This document shows positions 27,601 to 55,637 of a stretch of 64,000 nucleotides of DNA, piece after piece. Source of the stretch: Clavibacter californiensis (GTDB taxonomy: Bacteria; Actinomycetota; Actinomycetes; Actinomycetales; Microbacteriaceae). The notes beneath the pieces are model-generated. The model made no database searches, was not told where the DNA came from, and was given only the letters and a program-made list of their open reading frames with translations. The position numbers and the translations under genes are program-made. Positions within the stretch are counted from its first letter, which is position 1. Each line of letters begins with the position of its first letter. Where the stretch lies: positions 62,001 through 126,000 of the forward strand of contig NZ_CP040792.1 of NCBI RefSeq assembly GCF_021952865.1. The letters are read 5' to 3'.

Positions 27601-29438
27601 CCGAGGAGACCGGATCCGCCGCCGAGCACCTCGACGCGCTCGTCGCCGGCAGGCGCGCTCTCCGGGTCTCGTTCGGCGGGAAGCCGCGGGTCGCCGCCAT
27701 CGAGGACGCCAGCCGTCTGCGCGACGCGCTCGGGGTTCCGCTGCCCATCGGCACGCCGATGGCGTTCGTCGAGCCCGTGGCGGATCCGCTCGGCGACCTC
27801 GTCGGCCGGTACGCCCGCACGCACGGCCCCTTCACCATCGCGGACGCGGCCACCGGCATCGGGCTCGGATCCGCCGTCATCGCCGACACGCTCGCCCGGC
27901 TGGGCGCGCAGCGGCGCGTGGTCGAGGGCGAGTTCCGACCGGGTGCGTCCGGCAGCGAGTGGTGCGACGTCGAGGTGCTGCGGCGCCTGCGCAGCCGCTC
28001 GCTCGCGGCGCTCCGCAGCGAGGTCGAGCCGGTCGAGCGGGCCGCGTACGCCAGGTTCCTCCCGGCGTGGCAGCACGTGGCCGGCGCGGATCGCGAGCGC
28101 GGGCTCCGGGGGGTGGACGGCGTGCTGCAGGTCATCGAGCAGCTCGCGGGTGCGCCCGTGCCCGCATCCGCGTGGGAGACGCTCGTGCTGCCCGCGCGGG
28201 TGCGCGACTACACGCCCGCCATGCTCGACGAGCTCACGTCCACGGGCGAGGTCATCTGGTCGGGCGCAGGCACGCTCGCGGGCGCCGACGGCTGGGTGAG
28301 CCTGCACCTCGCCGACCAGGTCGCGCTCACGCTGCCCGAGCCCGACGCGCACGATACCGACGAGCTGCAGCGCGAGATCCTCACCACGCTCGGCACGGGC
28401 GGCGGCTACTTCTTCCGGCAGCTGAGCGACGCCGTCGGGTCCACGGACGATAAGGCGCTCGTCACCGCGCTGTGGGACCTCGTGTGGGCGGGCCTCGTCA
28501 CGAACGACACCCTGTCGCCGCTCCGGGCGCTGCTCGCCGGCGGATCCACGGCGCACAAGACACCGCAACGGGCGCCGCGCGGGCGCATGTACCGGGGCGG
28601 ACGCATGCCGCGGCCCGACATGCCCACCCGCACCGGACCGCCGACCGCGGCCGGGCGCTGGTCCATCGTGCCGCTCGCGGAGACCGACGCCACCGTGCGC
28701 GCGGCGGGCACGGCCGAGCTGCTGCTCGAGCGGTACGGCGTCGTCACGCGTGGATCCGTGATGACCGAGCGGGTGCCCGGCGGGTTCGCGCTCACCTACA
28801 AGGTGCTCGCGGGCTTCGAGGACACGGGACGCGCCCGACGCGGGTACTTCATCGAGACGCTGGGAGCGGCGCAGTTCTCCACGGGCGGCACGGTCGACCG
28901 GCTGCGCGGGTTCACGCGGGATCCGGACGCGGGCGAGCAGCCGCTGGTCGCGCTGACGCTCGCGGCCACGGATCCGGCGAACGCGTACGGGGCCGCGCTG
29001 CCCTGGCCGCGGCTCGACGGGTCGTCGCCCGACGGGGACGGCGGTGCGGTCACGGGCGCCGGCACGGAGGCGGGCGTCGACGCAGGAGTCGGCGACGCGT
29101 CGTCCGCGATCGCGGAGTCCGGCAGCGTCGACGCGCGCGGCGAGCGGCCCACCGGCCACCGCGCCGGCCGCAAGGCGGGCGCGCTCGTGGTGTTGGTCGA
29201 CGGCGAGCTCGTGCTCTACGTGGAGCGCGGCGGGAAGACCGTGCTGCTCTTCGACGACGACGAGGCGGTGATCCGCGCGGCGGCCGAGTCGCTCGGCGGC
29301 ATCGTCCGGCGCGGCGGGGTCGCGAAGCTCGCGATCGAGAAGGTCAACGGCGCGTTCATCCTCGGCACGCCGCTCGGCACCGCGCTCCAGGAGCACGGCT
29401 TCTCGGCGACGCCTCGCGGGCTGCGGATGCGGTCGTGA
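24618..29438 (+). CDS. lhr: ATP-dependent DNA helicase Lhr (large helicase-related)
   Basis: 1606-residue superfamily 2 helicase. RecA-like domain 1 carries VVAPTGSGKT (Walker A, about residue 46) and IVDEVHAV (DEVH box, about 170). Domain 2 carries SSLELGIDMGDVDLVVQ and SGLQRVGRAGHQVG. A winged helix and the long Lhr C-terminal domains follow. Lhr unwinds RNA:DNA hybrids and 3'-tailed DNA and is linked to DNA damage responses in mycobacteria. Two low-complexity Ala/Ser/Gly-rich insertions are notable: about residues 315-385 between the RecA domains, and about 1472-1515 near the end. The ATG is six bases after a GGAT/GGGCAG region. The Nei glycosylase gene follows 27 bp downstream, the conserved actinobacterial pairing. 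Confidence 0.97.
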   Translation: MDPVLARFSPATREWFQGAFPGPTAAQTGAWDAVQKGSHALVVAPTGSGKTLAAFLWSIDRLASRPAPEDPMRRTRVLYISPLKALAVDVERNLRSPLVGIVQTAKRLGAEPPEVTVGVRSGDTPAGDRRALAKTPPDILITTPESLFLMLTSAARETLAGVETVIVDEVHAVAATKRGSHLALSLERLDALLETPAQRIGLSATVRPPEEVARFLGGRSPVSIVSPKNTKEFDLRVIVPVDDMTELGTTAPLEGSAAQGDAPQQGSIWPHVEEGIVDLVLQHTSSIVFTNSRRLAERLTARLNEIYTTRIEDGRIDAAGNAVVGGTAAGSATADAVPVLAGAAAGSGSSRSADATAFSATRRTAARPPAEVMAQAGSTEGADPVLAKAHHGSVSKEQRALIEDDLKSGRLRCVVATSSLELGIDMGDVDLVVQVEAPPSVASGLQRVGRAGHQVGEVSRGVIFPKHRADLIHSAVAAERMASGQIESLRVPANPLDVLAQQTVAAVALEPLGVEEWFDIVRRSAPFATLPRSAYEATLDLLSGRYPSDEFAELRPRIVWDRDEGTIEGRPGAQRLAVTSGGTIPDRGLFGVFMVGEKASRVGELDEEMVYESRVGDVFALGATSWRIQEITHDRVLVTPAFGEPGKLPFWKGDGLGRPLELGRAIGAFVRELSGSAADDARTRAGRVGLDDRAVNNLLAFLDDQKKATGHVPNDRTLVVERFRDELGDWRVVLHSPYGMQVHAPWALAVGARVTELYGIDGATMANDDGIVVRIPETDGEPPGADLFVFEPDELDAIVTREVGGSALFASRFRECAARALLLPRYNPGRRSPLWQQRQRASQLLDVARKFPAFPIVLETVREVLQDVYDLPALTSLAKDIEARRIKIVETTTEDASPFARSLLFSYVGAFMYEGDSPLAERRAAALSLDAGLLSELLGRAELRELLDPAVIARTELELQRTAPDRRAKGLEGVADLLRILGPLDAEEVAARLEPEETGSAAEHLDALVAGRRALRVSFGGKPRVAAIEDASRLRDALGVPLPIGTPMAFVEPVADPLGDLVGRYARTHGPFTIADAATGIGLGSAVIADTLARLGAQRRVVEGEFRPGASGSEWCDVEVLRRLRSRSLAALRSEVEPVERAAYARFLPAWQHVAGADRERGLRGVDGVLQVIEQLAGAPVPASAWETLVLPARVRDYTPAMLDELTSTGEVIWSGAGTLAGADGWVSLHLADQVALTLPEPDAHDTDELQREILTTLGTGGGYFFRQLSDAVGSTDDKALVTALWDLVWAGLVTNDTLSPLRALLAGGSTAHKTPQRAPRGRMYRGGRMPRPDMPTRTGPPTAAGRWSIVPLAETDATVRAAGTAELLLERYGVVTRGSVMTERVPGGFALTYKVLAGFEDTGRARRGYFIETLGAAQFSTGGTVDRLRGFTRDPDAGEQPLVALTLAATDPANAYGAALPWPRLDGSSPDGDGGAVTGAGTEAGVDAGVGDASSAIAESGSVDARGERPTGHRAGRKAGALVVLVDGELVLYVERGGKTVLLFDDDEAVIRAAAESLGGIVRRGGVAKLAIEKVNGAFILGTPLGTALQEHGFSATPRGLRMRS

Positions 29439-47927: not shown

Positions 47928-48596
47928 ATGCCCGCCACCCGCACCCGCCCCGTCACGATCGCGCTCGTCGACGACTACGACGTGGTGCTGACGGGCCTCG
48001 CCCATATGTTCGACGACTACCGCGACCGCGTGCTGGTCGCCGAGATCGACGCGAACGCGGCCCTCTCCGACGACATCGACATCGTGCTCTACGACTCGTT
48101 CGCGCAGCCGGAGTCGGACCACCACGAGATCGCGGAGCTGGTGCGGAACCCGCGGGCCCGCCGCGTGGTGGTCTACACCTGGAACTTCCAGCCCGAGCTG
48201 ATCGCCGACGCCCGCCGGCAGGGCGTGCAGGGCTACCTCTCCAAGGCGCTGCCGGCGCGCGAGCTCGTGGAGGCGCTCGAGCGGATCCACTCCGGCGAGG
48301 AGCTGTTCAACGACGCGCCTCTCCGGGCCGCGAGCGCGCCGTCGCTCGACTGGCCCGGCAAGCGGGAGGGGATCACGGACCGCGAGTCGGAGATCCTCGC
48401 GCTCATCACGCAGGGTAAGAGCAACCAGGAGGTCGCGGCGCTCACCTACCTCTCCCCCAACACGGTGAAGAGCTACATCCGCTCGATCTACCGCAAGATC
48501 CAGGTGCAGAGCCGCACCCAGGCGGTGATCTGGGGCGTGGGGCACGGGTTCAGCCCGGACCACCACCGGATCGACCATTGGCTGGGCGGGCCGTAG
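47928..48596 (+). CDS. LuxR/NarL-family response regulator
   Basis: 222-residue regulator. The N-terminal receiver-like domain has VTIALVDDYDVVLTGLAHMF with acidic DD. The usual phospho-acceptor strand reads IDIVLYDSFAQ, with Asp near the expected place, and GYLSKALPARELVEAL carries the conserved Lys. The C-terminal GerE helix-turn-helix reads LTYLSPNTVKSYIRSIYRKI. No histidine kinase is adjacent, so it may be orphan. The start codon lies directly after the large dyad, which suggests autoregulation. Confidence 0.92.
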   Translation: MPATRTRPVTIALVDDYDVVLTGLAHMFDDYRDRVLVAEIDANAALSDDIDIVLYDSFAQPESDHHEIAELVRNPRARRVVVYTWNFQPELIADARRQGVQGYLSKALPARELVEALERIHSGEELFNDAPLRAASAPSLDWPGKREGITDRESEILALITQGKSNQEVAALTYLSPNTVKSYIRSIYRKIQVQSRTQAVIWGVGHGFSPDHHRIDHWLGGP

Positions 48597-48637
48597 GGCG
48601 GGACGCCAGCCGCGCCTAGAGGAAGCCTCATATGGCG

Positions 48638-48651
48638 TACGACCTGTCGTA
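48638..48651. promoter_or_regulatory. 14-bp palindrome TACGAC-CT-GTCGTA
   Basis: Perfect 6-bp arms around CT, between the LuxR gene and the lower-GC island. A candidate operator; the binding protein is unknown. Confidence 0.4.
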
Positions 48652-48718
48652 GGTGGGATTCTCTCCGTCAAGGTGGACGACACGTTCGAGGCGCATATCA
48701 TCTACAGGATTTATCTTG

Positions 48719-48768
48719 TATACTGTCAAAGCAGCTTGTGGATAAATTTGTGGACAACCTGTGCATAG
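48719..48768 (+). promoter_or_regulatory. promoter and three DnaA-box-like repeats
   Basis: TATACT (48719-48724) is a good -10 hexamer. Downstream are TGTGGATAA (48737-48745), TGTGGACAA (48749-48757) and TGTGCATAG (48760-48768). The first two are the reverse complements of the DnaA-box forms TTATCCACA and TTGTCCACA. The copies are spaced 12 and 11 bp, about one helical turn. They sit just before the metallopeptidase gene. Confidence 0.5.
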
Positions 48769-48787
48769 ACGAGGGAAGGATCGAGCC

Positions 48788-49285
48788 TTGATTCAGCGGA
48801 CGCCAGCCCAAGACGCCTATAGCACGCATAAAAAGTTTTGGGCCGACACTGGTGACGATTTGGATATCCCAATTGACCCCTTTGTGATCGCCACGTCAAT
48901 GGGAATCAAGGTGTACGACGCGATACTGGGCCCCGGTCGCTCTGGGTATCTCGATCTCGACCCGTCTGGACAACCAGTCATGTTCTTAAATGAGTCACAT
49001 TCACTAACTCGCAAACGTTTTACGTGTGCGCACGAAATTGGTCATTATGTGGATGCGACAAACAGGGGCGCCAAGGCGGGCACTTTTGATCGTGACGAGC
49101 GCGCATCAACAGGAACCGATCCCGACGAAGTATATGCAAACAGGTTTGCCGCCGCTTTACTTATGCCCAAGCCTGCACTCGTAAAGCAGCGAGCGCTCGG
49201 CATGAGCGCATCTGAGCTGTCCAACAGGTTCCGTGTCTCCCGCGAAGCAATGGAGTGGCGTCTAACCAATCTCGGACTGATCTAA
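48788..49285 (+). CDS. ImmA/IrrE-family metallopeptidase
   Basis: 165-residue zinc peptidase of the ImmA/IrrE group, whose members cleave XRE-type repressors in mobile elements or DdrO in Deinococcus. The zinc motif is HEIGHYVDA (in FTCAHEIGH), with the downstream Glu likely in DPDEVYANRFAAALLMP. TTG at 48788 is chosen because AAGGA lies seven bases upstream; an in-frame GTG at 48761 adds nine residues but lacks a site. Codon use and GC are visibly lower than the surroundings, a sign of transfer. The membrane-protein gene follows after only 5 bp. No XRE repressor gene is adjacent. Confidence 0.9.
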   Translation: MIQRTPAQDAYSTHKKFWADTGDDLDIPIDPFVIATSMGIKVYDAILGPGRSGYLDLDPSGQPVMFLNESHSLTRKRFTCAHEIGHYVDATNRGAKAGTFDRDERASTGTDPDEVYANRFAAALLMPKPALVKQRALGMSASELSNRFRVSREAMEWRLTNLGLI

Positions 49286-49290
49286 CGCGA

Positions 49291-49752
49291 ATGAGCACCG
49301 AAATCCCTGATCAGGTAGCGGATGAAGGGGAAGGCGCCGGCAGCCCCCTCCCTCCCCCTCAGGCGGGCGAAGACGACGCCGATCCCAGACCCGACTCCTT
49401 TCCCAATCGCGTCGTGAACGCTTGGAAAATTCTCACGGGTCAGGCCATCAGCCAAAGGATCACTGCTGATCCTGACGCGCAGTTGCGACACCGTAGGCTT
49501 ACGAGCGAGAATTGGTGGCGTAATATATACGCATTCGTTTTACTTATAGCAATGCTTTGGCAAATCGGTAATGCCAACGTGTTTTTTGGCCATTATGCCC
49601 GCGCTAACGATTACGACCTAGACCCCTCTGTCATGGTCGCTTTCCTTAGTGCGGTTGTGGTGGAGGTAATCGGATTAGTGCTCGTCATCACCCGATCACT
49701 GTTCCCAAGAGACATGTCGCCCCCTGCGTTACAACCGCCCCCAAAGGAGTAG
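49291..49752 (+). CDS. two-helix membrane protein paired with ImmA-like peptidase
   Basis: 153-residue protein of unknown family. An acidic, proline-rich N-terminus (about 45 residues) is followed by a cytoplasmic stretch (NAWKILTGQAISQRITADPD) and two membrane helices (about 84-104 and 120-140), with a short Pro-rich tail. It starts 5 bp after the peptidase stop, so the two are surely co-transcribed and probably act together. The peptidase might cleave the N-terminal segment, or this protein might anchor or sense for it; both are inference. GC is lower than in neighbouring genes. Confidence 0.75.
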   Translation: MSTEIPDQVADEGEGAGSPLPPPQAGEDDADPRPDSFPNRVVNAWKILTGQAISQRITADPDAQLRHRRLTSENWWRNIYAFVLLIAMLWQIGNANVFFGHYARANDYDLDPSVMVAFLSAVVVEVIGLVLVITRSLFPRDMSPPALQPPPKE

Positions 49753-49851
49753 TAAGGGCAGCAAACGCAGCTTAAGGGCCTTGGATCTGAGTGCGAGTCG
49801 AAGATCAACGATCACCACGTAGCCCATGCCTTGATCTGGTTGCATGAGCGC

Positions 49852-50916
49852 ATGATCCCCTCCACCTCGTCCCGGTTCCGCAAGTCCGTGCCCAAGGCGA
49901 AGGCGGGAGACAGGGTGGCGGTGCTGAGCCCTGCGTTCGCAGCCCCCGGGATCGCGCCGGAAGTGCACGAGCAGGCGATGCGGCGGCTGCAGGAGGCGAC
50001 CGGGCTGATCCCCGTCGAGTACCCGACCACCAGACGTCTCGGTGCCAGCGCCGAGGACCGCGCGGCCGACATCACGGCCGCGTTCGCCGACGACTCGATC
50101 CGCGCGATCGTCTCGACCATCGGAGGGGACGACCAGGTCACGGTGATCCCGCACGTCGACATCGAGGAGCTGGCCCGGAACCCCAAGCCGTTCCTCGGCT
50201 ACAGCGACAACACGAACCTGCACAACCTGCTTGCCGGGCTCGGCATCCCGAGCTTCTACGGCGGATCCACCCAGGTGCACCTCGGCGCGGGCCCCGGCAT
50301 CGACGACGTGCACCTGCGCTCGCTGCGGGCGGCGCTGATCGAGGGCGGGGAGCTGGAGATCACCGAGCCCGGGGAGTCCGAGGACTTCGGGATCGACTGG
50401 ACGGATCCCCGCGCGCTCACCGAGCACGGAGAGCGCCACGCGACCGAGCCGTGGAAGTGGGCCGGGCCGGCGCGCACGGTGGAGGGGCCGACGTGGGGCG
50501 GCTGCATCGAGGTGATCGACCAGATCGCCATGGCCGGCCGCATGCCCGAGACCGCGAAGCTCGAGGGCGGGATCCTGCTGCTGGAGACGAGCGAGGAGGT
50601 GCCGTCGGCCGACAGCGTGAAGCGTTGGGTCCGCGGTCTCGGCGAGCGCGGGATCCTCGACGTCGTCGCGGGCGTGCTCGTCGCCCGGCCGGTGACCATC
50701 GTCATGGGCGCGCCGGTGCCGTCGCCCGAGGAGCGCGCGCGGCTGCGTGCCGAGCAACGCGACACCGTCATCGAGCAGATCGCCCGCTACAACCCGCGCG
50801 CTGTGGTGTGCGTGGGCGTGCCGTTCGGCCACACGCGGCCGCAGTGGATCCTGCCGCACGGCGGGACGGTGCGGCTCGACGGGGCGGCGAAGACGGTGTT
50901 CGCGGACTTCAGCTGA
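49852..50916 (+). CDS. S66-family peptidase (LD-carboxypeptidase / MccF-like)
   Basis: 354-residue peptidase S66 member. The nucleophile is S118 in FLGYSDNTNLH. Glu is in GGILLLETSEEVPSAD and His in GVPFGHTRPQWILPHGG, completing the Ser-Glu-His triad. IVSTIGGDDQ and GIPSFYGG are further landmarks. The group includes LdcA (murein recycling) and MccF (self-immunity to microcin C-type toxins); the wide loop and length fit MccF-like proteins, but the choice is open. GC is again high. It lies between two lower-GC segments, and its 3' end is partly duplicated at 52095-52215. The ribosome-binding site is poor. Confidence 0.9.
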   Translation: MIPSTSSRFRKSVPKAKAGDRVAVLSPAFAAPGIAPEVHEQAMRRLQEATGLIPVEYPTTRRLGASAEDRAADITAAFADDSIRAIVSTIGGDDQVTVIPHVDIEELARNPKPFLGYSDNTNLHNLLAGLGIPSFYGGSTQVHLGAGPGIDDVHLRSLRAALIEGGELEITEPGESEDFGIDWTDPRALTEHGERHATEPWKWAGPARTVEGPTWGGCIEVIDQIAMAGRMPETAKLEGGILLLETSEEVPSADSVKRWVRGLGERGILDVVAGVLVARPVTIVMGAPVPSPEERARLRAEQRDTVIEQIARYNPRAVVCVGVPFGHTRPQWILPHGGTVRLDGAAKTVFADFS

Positions 50917-51127: not shown

Positions 51128-51489
51128 TCGGCTTCCTCATCCATATGTGATTCCGGTGCTGAGGAAATGGGCCCGTCAATCTTGTCTCGCGAGCGAAAAC
51201 CTCGCCTCGATTAATGATTACCTCAAGGCCGACGCGTTAGTTTCGAGATACCCACTGTCGAAAACTCAATTATCAAAACCCCTCGGCGAACGAGTCATCT
51301 GATTACGAGTACGCCGCCAGTCAGCAACGCCTTGCGTATTGGACTCGCTCACGCTTCGTGGTTTCATGCAACGGGCCCTGTGGACAAGACCCGATCTTGA
51401 TCGGACCAGGCCAGTACCTTGCCCTTGTAATCGCAAACCCTCCATCCAGCGAATGACTGGTTCATGCAACGCGCACGGAAGGCGCCAAC
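51128..51489. other. non-coding lower-GC stretch with a direct repeat
   Basis: No convincing gene was found in these 362 bp. TTCATGCAACG occurs twice in direct orientation, at 51363-51373 and 51461-51471, 98 bp apart, just ahead of the secreted-protein gene. These could be regulator sites. GGAAGG near 51476 is the likely ribosome-binding site of the next gene. Several short frames cross here but lack starts or codon bias. Confidence 0.4.
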
Positions 51490-52032
51490 ATGCACAAAAC
51501 AATCGGTGTCATTGCAAACATTGCCCTTGCGATGGCTGTCACCGCAGCTGCACCAGCTGCCGCGTACGGTGCAACCGCCGCACCGAGCAGACATGCCACC
51601 CATCACTATGTCGTAGTCACGGCAGCAATGCCTAAATCAATGATTGACGCAGCATTAAAGCATGAGGCAGTAGCGCAACCGGACGAAGCGAGCCCAGTTA
51701 GCACTCGCTGGCAGGATTATAAGGACCGGCTCGTCGTCCTGCGAATCGAGGCGCAGAATAAGATTTACTTCAAGCACAACTTGAGCTACACAGCAGTTCG
51801 TGTCGCGACCCAGCAACCCGATAGCGGACAACCGGACGCCGGTGACGCATGGAAGTACCTGACCACCTTTTTGAAGGTGGATCCCGAGACAGGGGAAATT
51901 GAAGACTCAGTAGTGGTCAAAACTATAGCCGATTTCCGAAACGTAGACGGAGATCCGCAAGGGGTGGTTACTTCCTACTGTGACGGAATTGAAGGAGCAT
52001 GCCCTTCCTGGGTGAATGAGACAGTGAGCTGA
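51490..52032 (+). CDS. secreted protein of unknown family
   Basis: 180-residue exported protein: a signal peptide (HKTIGVIANIALAMAVTAAA, cleavage near AYGA) then a hydrophilic domain. No known motif is recognised. Two Cys near the C-terminus (SYCDGIEGACPSW) may form a disulphide. The mid-region has alternating charged and hydrophobic residues (RLVVLRIEAQNKIYFKHNLS). GC and codon use are lower than the chromosome average. A strong hairpin follows the stop. It may be an effector or surface protein acquired with the segment; there is no direct support for that. Confidence 0.7.
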   Translation: MHKTIGVIANIALAMAVTAAAPAAAYGATAAPSRHATHHYVVVTAAMPKSMIDAALKHEAVAQPDEASPVSTRWQDYKDRLVVLRIEAQNKIYFKHNLSYTAVRVATQQPDSGQPDAGDAWKYLTTFLKVDPETGEIEDSVVVKTIADFRNVDGDPQGVVTSYCDGIEGACPSWVNETVS

Positions 52033-52094: not shown

Positions 52095-52215
52095 ATCGAA
52101 TCGTTGTTTAGCGTGGGTGTACCGTTCGGCAAACGCGGCCGTAGCTGATCTCACCCTACGGCGGTACGTTTCGGATCGACGGGGCGGCGAGGACGATGCT
52201 TGCGAACTACACTCG
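52095..52215 (+). pseudogene. decayed copy of the S66 peptidase 3' end
   Basis: This stretch aligns with 50793-50916 of the S66 gene. GTGGGTGTACCGTTCGG matches GTGGGCGTGCCGTTCGG, and ATCGACGGGGCGGCGAGGAC matches CTCGACGGGGCGGCGAAGAC. It translates as pieces of GVPFG, then RP-stop-LISPYGGTFRIDGAARTMLANY, against RPQWILPHGGTVRLDGAAKT in the intact gene. Single-base indels and a CAG-to-TAG stop have broken the frame. It has no start region, so it was probably left by a partial duplication or by insertion at the gene's 3' end. Confidence 0.8.
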
Positions 52216-52793: not shown

Positions 52794-53837
52794 GTGACGC
52801 TGCAGAACCACCCCGGCGAGGTCGAGTTCCCCGTTCGCGCGCGCGTGCGCTACGCCCAGATGCTCAACGCACAGCGGATGAAGCCGCGCGGAGGGAGTGG
52901 GAAGCGCGCGCTGCTCATCACGGCCTTCGCGCTGCCGTTCGGCGTCGTCGGCAGCGGGCTCGGGATCCTCGTGGCGACGTCCGGTGAGCCGGAGGGCGGC
53001 CCGGCGATGCCCATCGTGCTGTTCGCGCTCGGGCTGGGCATCGGCATGCTCGTCGCCTCGATCGTGTTCCAGCAGATCGACGCGCGGGCGCCTCGGCGGG
53101 ACCAGCTCGATTACGTGGCCCAGGCGCGGATCCGACCGGTCACGCTCGAGGAGCAGCAGCTGCTCGCGCTCGACGCGGTGAGCGACTACTCGTTCGGTGG
53201 CTGGAACTCGTCGCTCGCGTTCCAGCCGACGTGGGCCGAGATGCCTGCGGAGCTGCGCGCGAAGCACGCCGACGGCGCGACCGGGCACGAGTGGGTCGGC
53301 CTGCCGATGACGACGCTCGCCCAGCATCGAGCCGCCCTCGACACGCAGTTCCGCATCGCGTCGCGCGACGACATCGAGCTGTTCGTGGCGGATGCGCTGG
53401 CGCAGGGGCCGCAGTCGGCGCGCTTCGCGGAGCTGGCCGCGTCCGAGGAGGCGGAGCGCATGGTGTCGCGCATGGCCGCCCTCACCGGCCGGAGCGAGTT
53501 CGAGATCATCGACCTGACCCGGCCGCACGACGGCCGGCCGCCCGTGCTGCTGCTCGCGGGCGACAGCGAGCGCACCATCGGCGCGATCCGCTACGCCTAC
53601 ATGGCCGGGTACCTGTCCGCGGACGACGCGTGGGCGCTGATCCGGCAGATCGGCGCCCGGGTGTTCGCGACCTACGACGGCTGGGACGCCTACTGGGCGG
53701 ACGTGTCGCTCGCGCTCGCCTTCCGCACCGACAGCCTCGACGCGGTGATGTCGCAGCGGCGGGTGCGGGATGCGCTCGTCGCGTCCGCGTGGCCGGCGGC
53801 GACGGTGCCGTGGCCGGCCGGGGTGCGGGTCAGCTGA
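52794..53837 (+). CDS. DUF1266-domain membrane protein
   Basis: 347-residue protein. Two membrane helices near residues 41-62 and 72-91 are followed by a soluble part whose C-terminal half matches DUF1266: AYMAGYLSADDAWALIRQIG, then ARVFATYDGWDAYWADVSLA. Function is unknown; DUF1266 proteins appear with secretion and toxin loci in some bacteria. The GTG start has TAGGCT exactly six bases upstream and no Shine-Dalgarno, a leaderless arrangement. Its end overlaps the convergent XRE gene by 8 bp. Confidence 0.82.
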   Translation: MTLQNHPGEVEFPVRARVRYAQMLNAQRMKPRGGSGKRALLITAFALPFGVVGSGLGILVATSGEPEGGPAMPIVLFALGLGIGMLVASIVFQQIDARAPRRDQLDYVAQARIRPVTLEEQQLLALDAVSDYSFGGWNSSLAFQPTWAEMPAELRAKHADGATGHEWVGLPMTTLAQHRAALDTQFRIASRDDIELFVADALAQGPQSARFAELAASEEAERMVSRMAALTGRSEFEIIDLTRPHDGRPPVLLLAGDSERTIGAIRYAYMAGYLSADDAWALIRQIGARVFATYDGWDAYWADVSLALAFRTDSLDAVMSQRRVRDALVASAWPAATVPWPAGVRVS

Positions 53838-54420
53838 CCGGATGCGTCGGAGCTGCCGCGGGCGTCGCGACCGCGGGCGTCACCGTCGAGGCAGCCGCGG
53901 CAGCCGCGGTCGCCGCGGTCGCCGCGGTCGCCGAACGATGCTCGCGGCGGCGCTGGCGGCGGGTGCGGGTGCTGCGGCTGAGCGGGTAGTGCGCATCCAG
54001 CCGCGGCTCCAGGAGGAGCCGCCGGAGGGCGAGCGCGATGAGCGTGCCGCCCAGCCAGTAGGCGAGGAAGAGGGCGAGGCCGTTCGAGATGGTGAAGGCC
54101 ACGAGGGTCAGGACGATGCCGACACCGACGAAGAGCAGCACCCAGGCGCGCGTCAGGCGGTCGCGGTCGCCCTGCTGATCGCTCGTGCGGGATTCCAGGG
54201 AGTCGACGCGGCTGTTGAGGTCGGCGTCGTCGATGGCGGAGAAGAGGTCGCGGACGGTGACGCGCAGCGCCTCCGCCACGAGCGAGAGCGTCTCGAGGCT
54301 CGCGTCCTCCCCCGCCTCCAGCCGTTGGACGGTGCGGACGCCCACTCCGCTCTCGGTGGCGAGGCGCTCCTGGGTCCAGCCCTGCGCCTGACGTAGTTCG
54401 ATGATCCGTGTCGTGTTCAT
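53830..54420 (-). CDS. XRE helix-turn-helix protein with membrane helices
   Basis: 196-residue protein: an N-terminal XRE-type helix-turn-helix (IIELRQAQGWTQERLATESG, then VGVRTVQRLEAGEDASLETL), then a short coiled linker and two membrane helices (about residues 94-115 and 118-137). The C-terminus is basic, then Ala/Thr-rich from a 9-bp tandem repeat. It is probably a membrane-tethered transcription regulator. The ATG at 54420 is chosen; an ATG nine bases upstream is also possible. It converges on the DUF1266 gene with an 8-bp overlap. Confidence 0.85.
   Translation of the reverse strand: MNTTRIIELRQAQGWTQERLATESGVGVRTVQRLEAGEDASLETLSLVAEALRVTVRDLFSAIDDADLNSRVDSLESRTSDQQGDRDRLTRAWVLLFVGVGIVLTLVAFTISNGLALFLAYWLGGTLIALALRRLLLEPRLDAHYPLSRSTRTRRQRRREHRSATAATAATAAAAAASTVTPAVATPAAAPTHPVS
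53892..53933. repeat. 9-bp tandem repeat in XRE gene
   Basis: About 4.7 copies of (C/T)(A/C)GCCGCGG-type units encode an Ala/Thr-rich run near the C-terminus. The array could change length between strains without breaking the frame. Confidence 0.7.
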
Positions 54421-54572
54421 GCGTCCCATGCTCGATCCGCCCCTCCCGCCAGCACCACGCCAGCGACCCGCCGGTGACCCGCCGGGCGGCCGCCATCGAC
54501 CCGCCAGCCCATGCTCGCAGGGATACGCGGCCGCGTCGGGCCCCGGTTCGGGGCGGGAGGCAGCCGCGCGGA

Positions 54573-55637
54573 TCAGTCGCGCGGCTCGCCCGTGAGGGGG
54601 CGGATCACGCGGTGGCCGTCGAGGGAGCGGGCCGCCTCGAGGACGTGGGCGGGCGTGATCGCGAGGAGCGCCGGATCCGGGATCGCGGAGAACGTGTCGC
54701 CGAGGCGCTGCGACGCGTCGGTCAGCACGATGTGCGGGCCGGACGCGGGCGGGCCCCACTCCTCGGGCGGGGCCGGGCCGAAGATCACGACAGAGGGGAT
54801 GCCGTATGCGGTCGCGAGGTGGGCGGCGCCGGTGTCGGCGGAGATCACGAGGTCGGCGGCGGCGATGATGCCGGCGAAGGCGTCGAGGGCCAGCTCGCCC
54901 GCGAGCACGGTCGATGTGGGCATGCCGGCGAGGGAGGCGACCTCGAGGGCGCGTTCGCGCTCCTTGTCGGAGCCGGTGAAGACGACCGTGCGCCCCTCGT
55001 CGGCGAGCGCGCGGGCGACCTCGGCGAAGCGGTCGACGGGCCACTGGCGGGATCCGTAGGCGGCGCCCACGTGGATTACGACGGCGTGCTCGGCGACGGG
55101 CGGCTCGACGGGCACGAGGATGCCGACGTCCTCGGGATCCGCGGGCATGCCGTGCCACGAGACAAGCCGGGCCCAGCGGTACCGCTCGAGGACGTGGTCC
55201 TCCCAGGCGGGGCCGTCGGCGGCGGGCATCCCGTCGAGCTCAGGCGCAGCATGGCCGAGCGTGCGGTGCGCGCGCAGCTCGTGGAGGAGGGTGCGGCTCT
55301 CGATCCCGGCGCCGTGCAGGTTGATCGCGAGGTCGACCGTGCCGGGTTCGCGCGCGATGGGGTGGTCGAATCCCTGCTGCGGGAGGTGCTCGTCGACCAT
55401 GCCGAGGAGCGTGACGACCGGCGCCAGCCAGCCGGTGGTGGCGAGCGAGATGCGGGCGTCGGGGTGCGCGCGGCGGATGGCGCGGAGCGCGGGGACGGCC
55501 ACGAGGATGTCGCCGAGCTTGATGGCGCGGAGGACGAGGACCTCTTCCGGGTGCGGCTCCCCGGTCGCGGCGTCCGCGGATCCGGCGGTCGCGGGCCGGG
55601 CTTCGGGGAAGGCGTCGGGGACGCCGGGGGTCTGCAT
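54573..55637 (-). CDS. glycosyltransferase family 9 (heptosyltransferase-like)
   Basis: 354-residue GT9 protein. VLVLRAIKLGDILVAVPALR is the typical N-terminal glycine loop. The C-terminal donor-binding part has VVIHVGAAYGSRQWPVDRFA, VVFTGSDKERE and the signature VISADTGAAHLATAYGIPSV. GT9 enzymes add heptose to lipopolysaccharide in Gram-negatives. In this Gram-positive the product must be another envelope polymer, perhaps a cell-wall glycan. A second GT9 domain occurs at 62163. CAGGCT lies seven bases before the ATG. Confidence 0.9.
   Translation of the reverse strand: MQTPGVPDAFPEARPATAGSADAATGEPHPEEVLVLRAIKLGDILVAVPALRAIRRAHPDARISLATTGWLAPVVTLLGMVDEHLPQQGFDHPIAREPGTVDLAINLHGAGIESRTLLHELRAHRTLGHAAPELDGMPAADGPAWEDHVLERYRWARLVSWHGMPADPEDVGILVPVEPPVAEHAVVIHVGAAYGSRQWPVDRFAEVARALADEGRTVVFTGSDKERERALEVASLAGMPTSTVLAGELALDAFAGIIAAADLVISADTGAAHLATAYGIPSVVIFGPAPPEEWGPPASGPHIVLTDASQRLGDTFSAIPDPALLAITPAHVLEAARSLDGHRVIRPLTGEPRD

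What the first reader, a model, noticed from the sequence alone, without database searches (positions are those of the whole stretch)
48597..49760. Acquired two-gene unit: ImmA/IrrE peptidase plus two-helix membrane protein
Seen: a lower-GC block with an ImmA/IrrE peptidase (HEIGH) and, 5 bp later, a 153-residue membrane protein with an acidic cytoplasmic N-terminus. No XRE repressor, integrase or phage gene is adjacent, although most ImmA peptidases sit beside their repressor. Inference: the peptidase may cleave or regulate the membrane protein, forming a small regulated-proteolysis, defence or stress module. This is the best candidate for an undescribed system in the window.
Basis: partly seen in the sequence, partly recalled or inferred. 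Interest (0 to 1): 0.7.

Follow-up and report, generated by a model that had tools for sequence, protein, structure and literature searches.

The report
Toxin-antitoxin pair with membrane toxin
Two small foreign genes, a protease and a membrane protein, look like a phage-type toxin-antitoxin pair of a kind already shown in another phage to protect bacteria from viruses, sitting where related species carry other toxin-antitoxin pairs.

Summary
Window 48618-49835 is a low-GC insert (53.5% against 73.0%) with an ImmA/IrrE peptidase and, 5 bp on, a 153-residue two-helix membrane protein. Both are homologous to gp32/gp33 of Gordonia phage Kita (40% and 32% identity). Ernits et al. 2023 (PMC10440598) report a Kita pair of this make-up as a RosmerTA toxin-antitoxin: ImmA protease antitoxin, membrane-depolarising toxin, phage defence in E. 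coli. A small membrane-protein ORF follows the peptidase in 72 of 80 viral and 24 of 80 genomic relatives, against 221 of 3007 other ORFs. In 17 other species of the genus the site is empty within 10 bp in five, holds Fic-motif ORFs in five and ParDE-like ORFs in two. Most likely it is a Kita-type RosmerTA module: a new member of a known kind. How the protease restrains the toxin is open; catalytic residues are invariant (37 of 37) and a juxtamembrane dyad is a candidate cleavage site. No activity was tested for this pair.

The parts
48618..49835 (.). Acquired insert between a LuxR-type regulator gene and an S66 LD-carboxypeptidase gene
   Evidence: Flanks are contiguous, with a 2-bp overlap of the two matches, in four related species (L191, L193, L200, L202); GC 53.5% against 73.0%
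48618..48787 (+). Upstream leader of the pair; one sigma-70-like match at 48674-48701, at chance level
   Evidence: 1 promoter-like site found in 48560-49880, shuffle mean 0.7
48788..49285 (+). ImmA/IrrE (M78) zinc peptidase, 165 aa, no N-terminal HTH: predicted antitoxin (RmrA, D25-type)
49291..49752 (+). Two-helix membrane protein, 153 aa: predicted membrane-depolarising toxin (RmrT, D5-type)
   Evidence: BLASTP to Kita gp33 32%, E 2.3e-11, 43.9 bits against at most 23.1 bits over 1000 shuffles; first-ranked BFVD fold match is the Gordonia phage Polly membrane protein, E 4.9e-3, probability 1.00
49516..49521 (+). Codons for W76-R77, a juxtamembrane hydrophobic-basic dyad: candidate cleavage or contact site (inference)
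   Evidence: Dyad present in 34 of 36 aligned relatives; PprI cuts DdrO between Leu and Arg (PMC4374696, passage)
49663..49707 (+). Codons for residues 125-139, with the conserved second-helix signature E125, G128, L137-F138-P139
   Evidence: In 36 aligned: E125 is E in 28 and Q in 8; G128 in 28; L137 in 35; F138 in 35; P139 in 22
47928..48596 (+). Left flank: LuxR/GerE-type regulator (host gene, not part of the unit)
   Evidence: Pfam GerE E 4.4e-17
49852..50916 (+). Right flank: S66 LD-carboxypeptidase (host gene; start codon approximate)
   Evidence: Pfam Peptidase_S66 E 6e-27; found in 18 of 18 genomes of the genus

Best explanation
A phage-derived RosmerTA-type toxin-antitoxin of the Kita kind. 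The ImmA/IrrE peptidase (RmrA-like) is the antitoxin and its gene comes first; the two-helix membrane protein (RmrT D5-like) is the toxin. In the resting cell the peptidase holds the toxin down. When an infecting phage disturbs the peptidase, the toxin opens the inner membrane, the cell loses its potential and phage production stops with it. Shown here: homology of both genes to the Kita pair, recurrence of the pair, acquisition, intact catalytic residues. Inferred from the published Kita data: toxicity, neutralisation and defence. Conjecture: the trigger, and that neutralisation is proteolytic.
For: Kita gp32/gp33 overlap by 4 bp and lie between tail genes and the DNA-binding-protein and integrase genes. 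The window proteins match them at 40% (E 3.9e-31) and 32% (E 2.3e-11). Ernits et al. (section 11 part 1): Kita RmrA D25 protease plus D5 toxin; the toxin depolarises and permeabilises E. coli; the pair defends against some BASEL myophages. Pair recurrence: 72 of 80 viral loci (48 of 55 clusters) and 24 of 80 genome loci against 221 of 3007 control ORFs. D5-like family of 49 members: 6 seeds, 14 from genome contigs, 29 from viral contigs. HExxH in 49 of 49, with the further Glu pattern in 48 of 49. The same chromosomal site carries Fic-motif or ParDE-like ORFs in 7 of 17 other species. First-ranked viral fold match is the Polly membrane protein, identical to Kita gp33.
Against: Nothing was tested on these two genes in a cell. 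Identity of the toxins is low (32%) and rests mostly on the membrane part; the BFVD fold match has E 4.9e-3 and none of 33 matches reaches 0.001. The passages that I saw give no accession for the Kita pair; I identify it as gp32/gp33 from the annotation. PADLOC models match the membrane family only in single members and not as RmrT, and the RmrA models match only in their peptidase part. In Kita the antitoxin neutralised the toxin only partly and AlphaFold gave no reliable complex. 54 of 103 small membrane partners are not detectably D5-like, and 56 of 80 genome relatives have no such partner. The paper's text and figure legend disagree on which phages are blocked.
Confidence: 0.82

Rival explanations
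1. Superinfection exclusion or entry-block module: the membrane protein itself blocks phage DNA entry and the peptidase regulates its level; no cell killing.
For: The Kita and Polly pairs lie between tail genes and integrase, and a membrane protein is a natural entry blocker (general knowledge).
Against: The published Kita toxin stops translation, transcription and replication and depolarises cells when expressed alone.
Confidence: 0.07
2. The peptidase is an activator: it cuts the membrane protein to release an active fragment on stress.
For: Catalytic residues invariant in 37 of 37; IrrE/PprI acts by cutting a partner at a Leu-Arg bond (PMC4374696 passage).
Against: In Kita the toxin acts alone and the protease relieves it, if partly.
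Confidence: 0.05
3. ImmA-type antirepressor left over from a prophage, its XRE repressor lost; the membrane gene is a bystander.
For: COG2856 peptidases are mostly found with Xre proteins (Makarova 2009, PMC2701414, passages).
Against: Partner is a small membrane protein in 72 of 80 viral relatives against 221 of 3007 control ORFs; correlated divergence; the insert holds the two genes and a leader.
Confidence: 0.02
4. Selfish addiction module without defence role, kept at a site that takes up toxin-antitoxin pairs.
For: The same site holds Fic-motif or ParDE-like ORFs in 7 of 17 other species.
Against: The Kita homologue protects E. coli against phages; addiction and defence do not exclude each other.
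Confidence: 0.04

Closest known systems
RosmerTA of Gordonia phage Kita (RmrA D25 plus RmrT D5; Ernits et al. 2023, PMC10440598; gp32/gp33 by my reading of the annotation)
   Same: Same gene order, stand-alone ImmA/IrrE peptidase, overlapping or adjacent two-helix membrane partner; both proteins homologous
   Different: Window pair is chromosomal and the genes next to it are not phage genes; toxin is longer (153 against 119 aa) with a longer N-terminus; 32% identity; no activity data
RosmerTA as modelled in PADLOC (RmrA profiles of 357-400 positions)
   Same: Peptidase domain matches, best RmrA E 2.8e-14
   Different: The match covers only the peptidase part; no HTH; no RmrT match for 36 members of the membrane family at E 0.01
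CapP of CapH-CapP (CBASS regulator)
   Different: No CapH-like repressor or CBASS gene in the insert or as flanking gene
ImmA-ImmR of ICEBs1 and IrrE/PprI-DdrO
   Same: Same peptidase family and fold, invariant HExxH and Glu
   Different: No Xre repressor partner; a membrane protein instead
Panacea-neutralised membrane toxins PanT (PMC8832971, passages)
   Same: Membrane toxin that depolarises, next to a promiscuous antitoxin domain
   Different: The antitoxin domain is Panacea (DUF4065), not ImmA

Membership tests
RosmerTA, Kita type (RmrA D25 + RmrT D5) | ImmA/IrrE peptidase as one partner | tested here: met
RosmerTA, Kita type (RmrA D25 + RmrT D5) | Adjacent partner homologous to the validated D5 membrane toxin | tested here: met
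   BLASTP E 2.3e-11 to Kita gp33; D5-like profile family; first-ranked BFVD match. That gp33 is the tested toxin is inferred from the annotation
RosmerTA, Kita type (RmrA D25 + RmrT D5) | Pair conserved across genomes | tested here: met
   Small TM ORF next in 72 of 80 viral and 24 of 80 genome loci; control 221 of 3007; 49 D5-like
RosmerTA, Kita type (RmrA D25 + RmrT D5) | Toxicity of the membrane protein and neutralisation by the peptidase | not testable with these tools
   Needs expression; reported for Kita
RosmerTA, Kita type (RmrA D25 + RmrT D5) | Defence against phage | not testable with these tools
   Reported for Kita
RosmerTA as modelled in PADLOC | Full-length match to an RmrA model, including the part before the peptidase | tested here: not met
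   Best RmrA match covers profile positions 173-267 of 363. Ernits et al. say D25 proteins 'often' have an N-terminal HTH, so I do not take it as defining for the Kita type; Kita gp32 (178 aa) aligns from its residue 32
ImmA-ImmR regulator | Adjacent Xre-family repressor | tested here: not met
   Neighbours are LuxR, membrane protein, S66; an XRE-like ORF lies about 4-5 kb away
CapH-CapP of CBASS | CapH-like repressor and CBASS genes next to the peptidase | tested here: not met
   Insert holds the two genes; flanking genes are LuxR and S66. The rest of the window was not scanned for CBASS

The most novel reading that the evidence does not exclude
The pair belongs to a class of toxin-antitoxin in which the antitoxin works as an enzyme: the ImmA peptidase destroys the toxin by cutting it at the conserved hydrophobic-basic bond just before the first membrane helix (W76-R77 here), so that phage interference with the peptidase lets uncut toxin build up and open the membrane. 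The conserved acidic or amide residue in the second helix (E125; E or Q in 36 of 36) would line the pore.
Probability: 0.25. Interest if true: 0.65.

Novelty: new member of a known kind. Interest (0 to 1): 0.38.

Why it matters
It places a defence pair, validated in one Gordonia phage, in a bacterial chromosome of another family, and shows that the membrane-toxin family is widespread: 49 members found here, among genome contigs from Actinobacteria, Clostridia, Proteobacteria and candidate phyla by their titles, although Pfam and PADLOC models match it only in single members. The invariant catalytic residues and the juxtamembrane dyad make an open question testable: does an ImmA antitoxin neutralise by cutting its toxin?

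Tried and rejected
Toxin search by direct homology gave little at first: no match in 50,697 phage records (E up to 1) and one 37.5% piece at E 0.5 in plasmids. A six-sequence profile matched 3 of 396 genomes of the phylum at E up to 0.001: the own one, one frame with a stop, and G482 (E 1.4e-7), which I did not follow. P0004 alone found no viral relative; P0006 found only a contig of Kita's length. Searching with the peptidase worked.

The G011 match near the same contig position (E 3.2e-4) I take as chance: its locus shows an ilvC-like gene (name recalled) and overlapping ORFs, and no peptidase beside it. In one search I followed the three matches at E up to 1.6e-4 (L003-L005) and none of the weaker ones, among them a second place in the own genome.

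Considered and rejected: CapP/CBASS (no such genes next to it), ImmA-ImmR (no repressor), orphan peptidase with bystander (pair statistics). The juxtamembrane motif [LYWFM][RK][RK] is enriched in the D5 family (27 of 44 against 18 of 244 control TM1s) but far less in the other membrane partners (6 of 35), and D5 members share descent, so it is a lead and not evidence of cleavage. The N-terminus is net negative in only 28 of 44 family clusters, so an acidic N-terminus is not a family trait. Family libraries say little: Pfam matched three of 36 members, each with a different unlikely family or a holin; PADLOC gave single matches to 4TM effectors and one candidate; PHROG 5346 matched 15 of 36 and PHROG 35754 13 of 36, both without known function; the window's own protein matched none at E 0.001.

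Bias and rows dropped: L003-L005 were found through the toxin, so the bin '23 of 24 closest' holds loci chosen for having it and I do not rest on it. The 80 viral and 80 genome loci were found through the peptidase alone, though the alignment that seeded the scans includes peptidases of L003-L005. Three genome and two viral loci had no room for a partner and stay in the denominators. The control counts mechanical ORFs of at least 80 aa in the 142 cluster representatives, not annotated genes, so its rate of 7.4% may understate that for true neighbouring genes. Correlated divergence may partly reflect shared ancestry of the hosts. In one search the best reversed decoy had E 0.0033 in round one; members were accepted at 1e-4.

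Literature searches. Papers: PMC10440598 section 11 part 1 and passages; PMC9519451, PMC2701414, PMC12323379, PMC8832971, PMC12322248, PMC10023795, PMC12421847 and PMC4374696 passages only; all others as search listings. Millman et al. 2022 I saw only as a reference. In what I saw, the only description of an ImmA plus membrane-toxin pair was the Kita one; most subscription papers are not held.

Full report
WHAT IS THERE. The insert lies at 48618-49835. It holds an M78/ImmA-IrrE peptidase of 165 aa (48788-49285, TTG start with GGAAGG upstream) and, 5 bp on, a membrane protein of 153 aa (49291-49752). GC is 53.5% against 73.0% for the rest of the window, and third-position GC is 0.56 and 0.59 against 0.98 and 0.95 in the flanking LuxR-type and S66 genes.

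ACQUISITION. The S66 gene is in 18 of 18 genomes of the genus; the peptidase, at E up to 1e-8, is in 1 of 18, the own one. In four of the 17 other species (L191, L193, L200, L202) the sequence left of window 48617 joins that right of 49836 with a 2-bp overlap, and in L192 8 bp lie between. Five others (L187, L189, L195, L199, L201) hold about 1.4 kb there with an ORF bearing HSFREGNTR; Pfam calls the L189 one Fic (E 3.6e-12). L190 holds ORFs called ParD (E 3.3e-35) and ParE (E 2.9e-21), and L197 carries ORFs like both (Pfam was run on the L190 ones). Two small ORFs of the kind beside the Fic ORFs matched no Pfam family at E 0.01. L188, L194, L196 and L203 hold 81-547 bp of other sequence; in L198 the left flank matches only over 47 bp. 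So the site takes up toxin-antitoxin genes. The mechanism of insertion is unknown; I saw no integrase in the insert.

THE PAIR RECURS. Peptidase relatives from genome contigs (best 80 of 275) and viral contigs (best 80 of 519) were fetched. The longest ORF of at least 80 aa on the same strand starting -60 to +120 from the peptidase stop is a small (up to 260 aa) protein with a hydrophobic segment in 24 of 80 genome loci and 72 of 80 viral loci (48 of 55 viral clusters at 80% identity); for all other ORFs in these loci it is 221 of 3007. An iterated profile from six seeds gathers 49 partners homologous to the window's membrane protein: the seeds, 14 from genome contigs and 29 from viral contigs; the other 54 of 103 small membrane partners are not detectably related. 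In 44 clusters the divergence of peptidase and partner correlates, r 0.672, reached by 0 of 5000 permutations.

WHAT IT MATCHES. Gordonia phage Kita (NC_031233.1) has the same order at 27740-28632: gp32 metallo-protease and gp33, overlapping by 4 bp, between tail genes and the DNA-binding-protein and integrase genes. The window proteins match at 40% (E 3.9e-31) and 32% (E 2.3e-11; 43.9 bits against at most 23.1 over 1000 shuffles). Polly gp30 is identical to Kita gp33 and is the first-ranked BFVD fold match of the window's membrane protein (E 4.9e-3, probability 1.00, rmsd 19.4; no match reaches E 0.001). Ernits et al. 2023 (PMC10440598, section 11 part 1) describe the Kita system as a new RosmerTA member: D25 protease antitoxin and D5 toxin; the toxin abrogates translation, transcription and replication, depolarises and permeabilises E. 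coli, and the pair blocks some BASEL myophages (text and legend differ on which). I saw no accession in the text, so equating it with gp32/gp33 is my inference. RosmerTA is also reported among the defence systems of actinobacterial prophages (PMC10023795, passage).

HOW IT LIKELY WORKS. The peptidase restrains a membrane-depolarising toxin until phage infection upsets the balance. That the catalytic residues do not drift argues that the peptidase is active, but does not say on what. PprI cuts DdrO between Leu108 and Arg109 (PMC4374696, passage), and the D5 family keeps a similar dyad next to helix 1; this is a lead. The positive-inside rule (recalled) could explain the basic residues alone.

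WHERE IT COMES FROM. The first 20 kb of the genome's second contig match 44 plasmid records, 26 of Clavibacter and 14 of Curtobacterium, so the genus is probably Clavibacter; the species is not known.

VERDICT. A genuine, acquired, functional-looking two-gene module, of a published kind. New are the chromosomal occurrence at a site shared with other toxin-antitoxin genes, the breadth of the D5 family and the cleavage-site lead.

Noticed in passing
Between window 48617 and 49836 in related species: L187, L189, L190, L195, L197, L199, L201: The LuxR-S66 intergenic site takes up toxin-antitoxin genes in this genus: Fic-motif ORFs with a small partner ORF in five species, ParDE-like ORFs in two.
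   Followed up: partly
L018:2471-3647, also L142, L143, L145, L150-L152, L154, L162, L164-L166, L168, L169, L171, L174, L177: A P2 phage record and several viral contigs carry an ImmA peptidase followed by a 199-252 aa two-TM protein that the D5 profile does not reach: possibly another toxin class of the same design.
   Followed up: no
window 51237-52032: A second low-GC stretch beyond the S66 gene, with ORF 51490-52032 of unknown family; of the 17 related loci only L194 matches it, 86% over 796 bp, but the loci reach only about 1.5 kb past S66.
   Followed up: partly
window 50810-50911 and 52111-52211: A roughly 100-bp repeat at 78% identity: the end of the S66 gene is repeated at 52111-52211, perhaps a trace of a duplication.
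   Followed up: no
G000:C2:34719-35057 (L205): The 78-kb second contig carries another M78 peptidase match (E 7.6e-12) near an ORF that looks like an AbiEii-type nucleotidyltransferase (recalled from the sequence).
   Followed up: no
window 53830-55158, - strand: An ORF contains an XRE-type HTH followed by hydrophobic stretches (by eye), about 4-5 kb from the pair; not treated as its partner.
   Followed up: no
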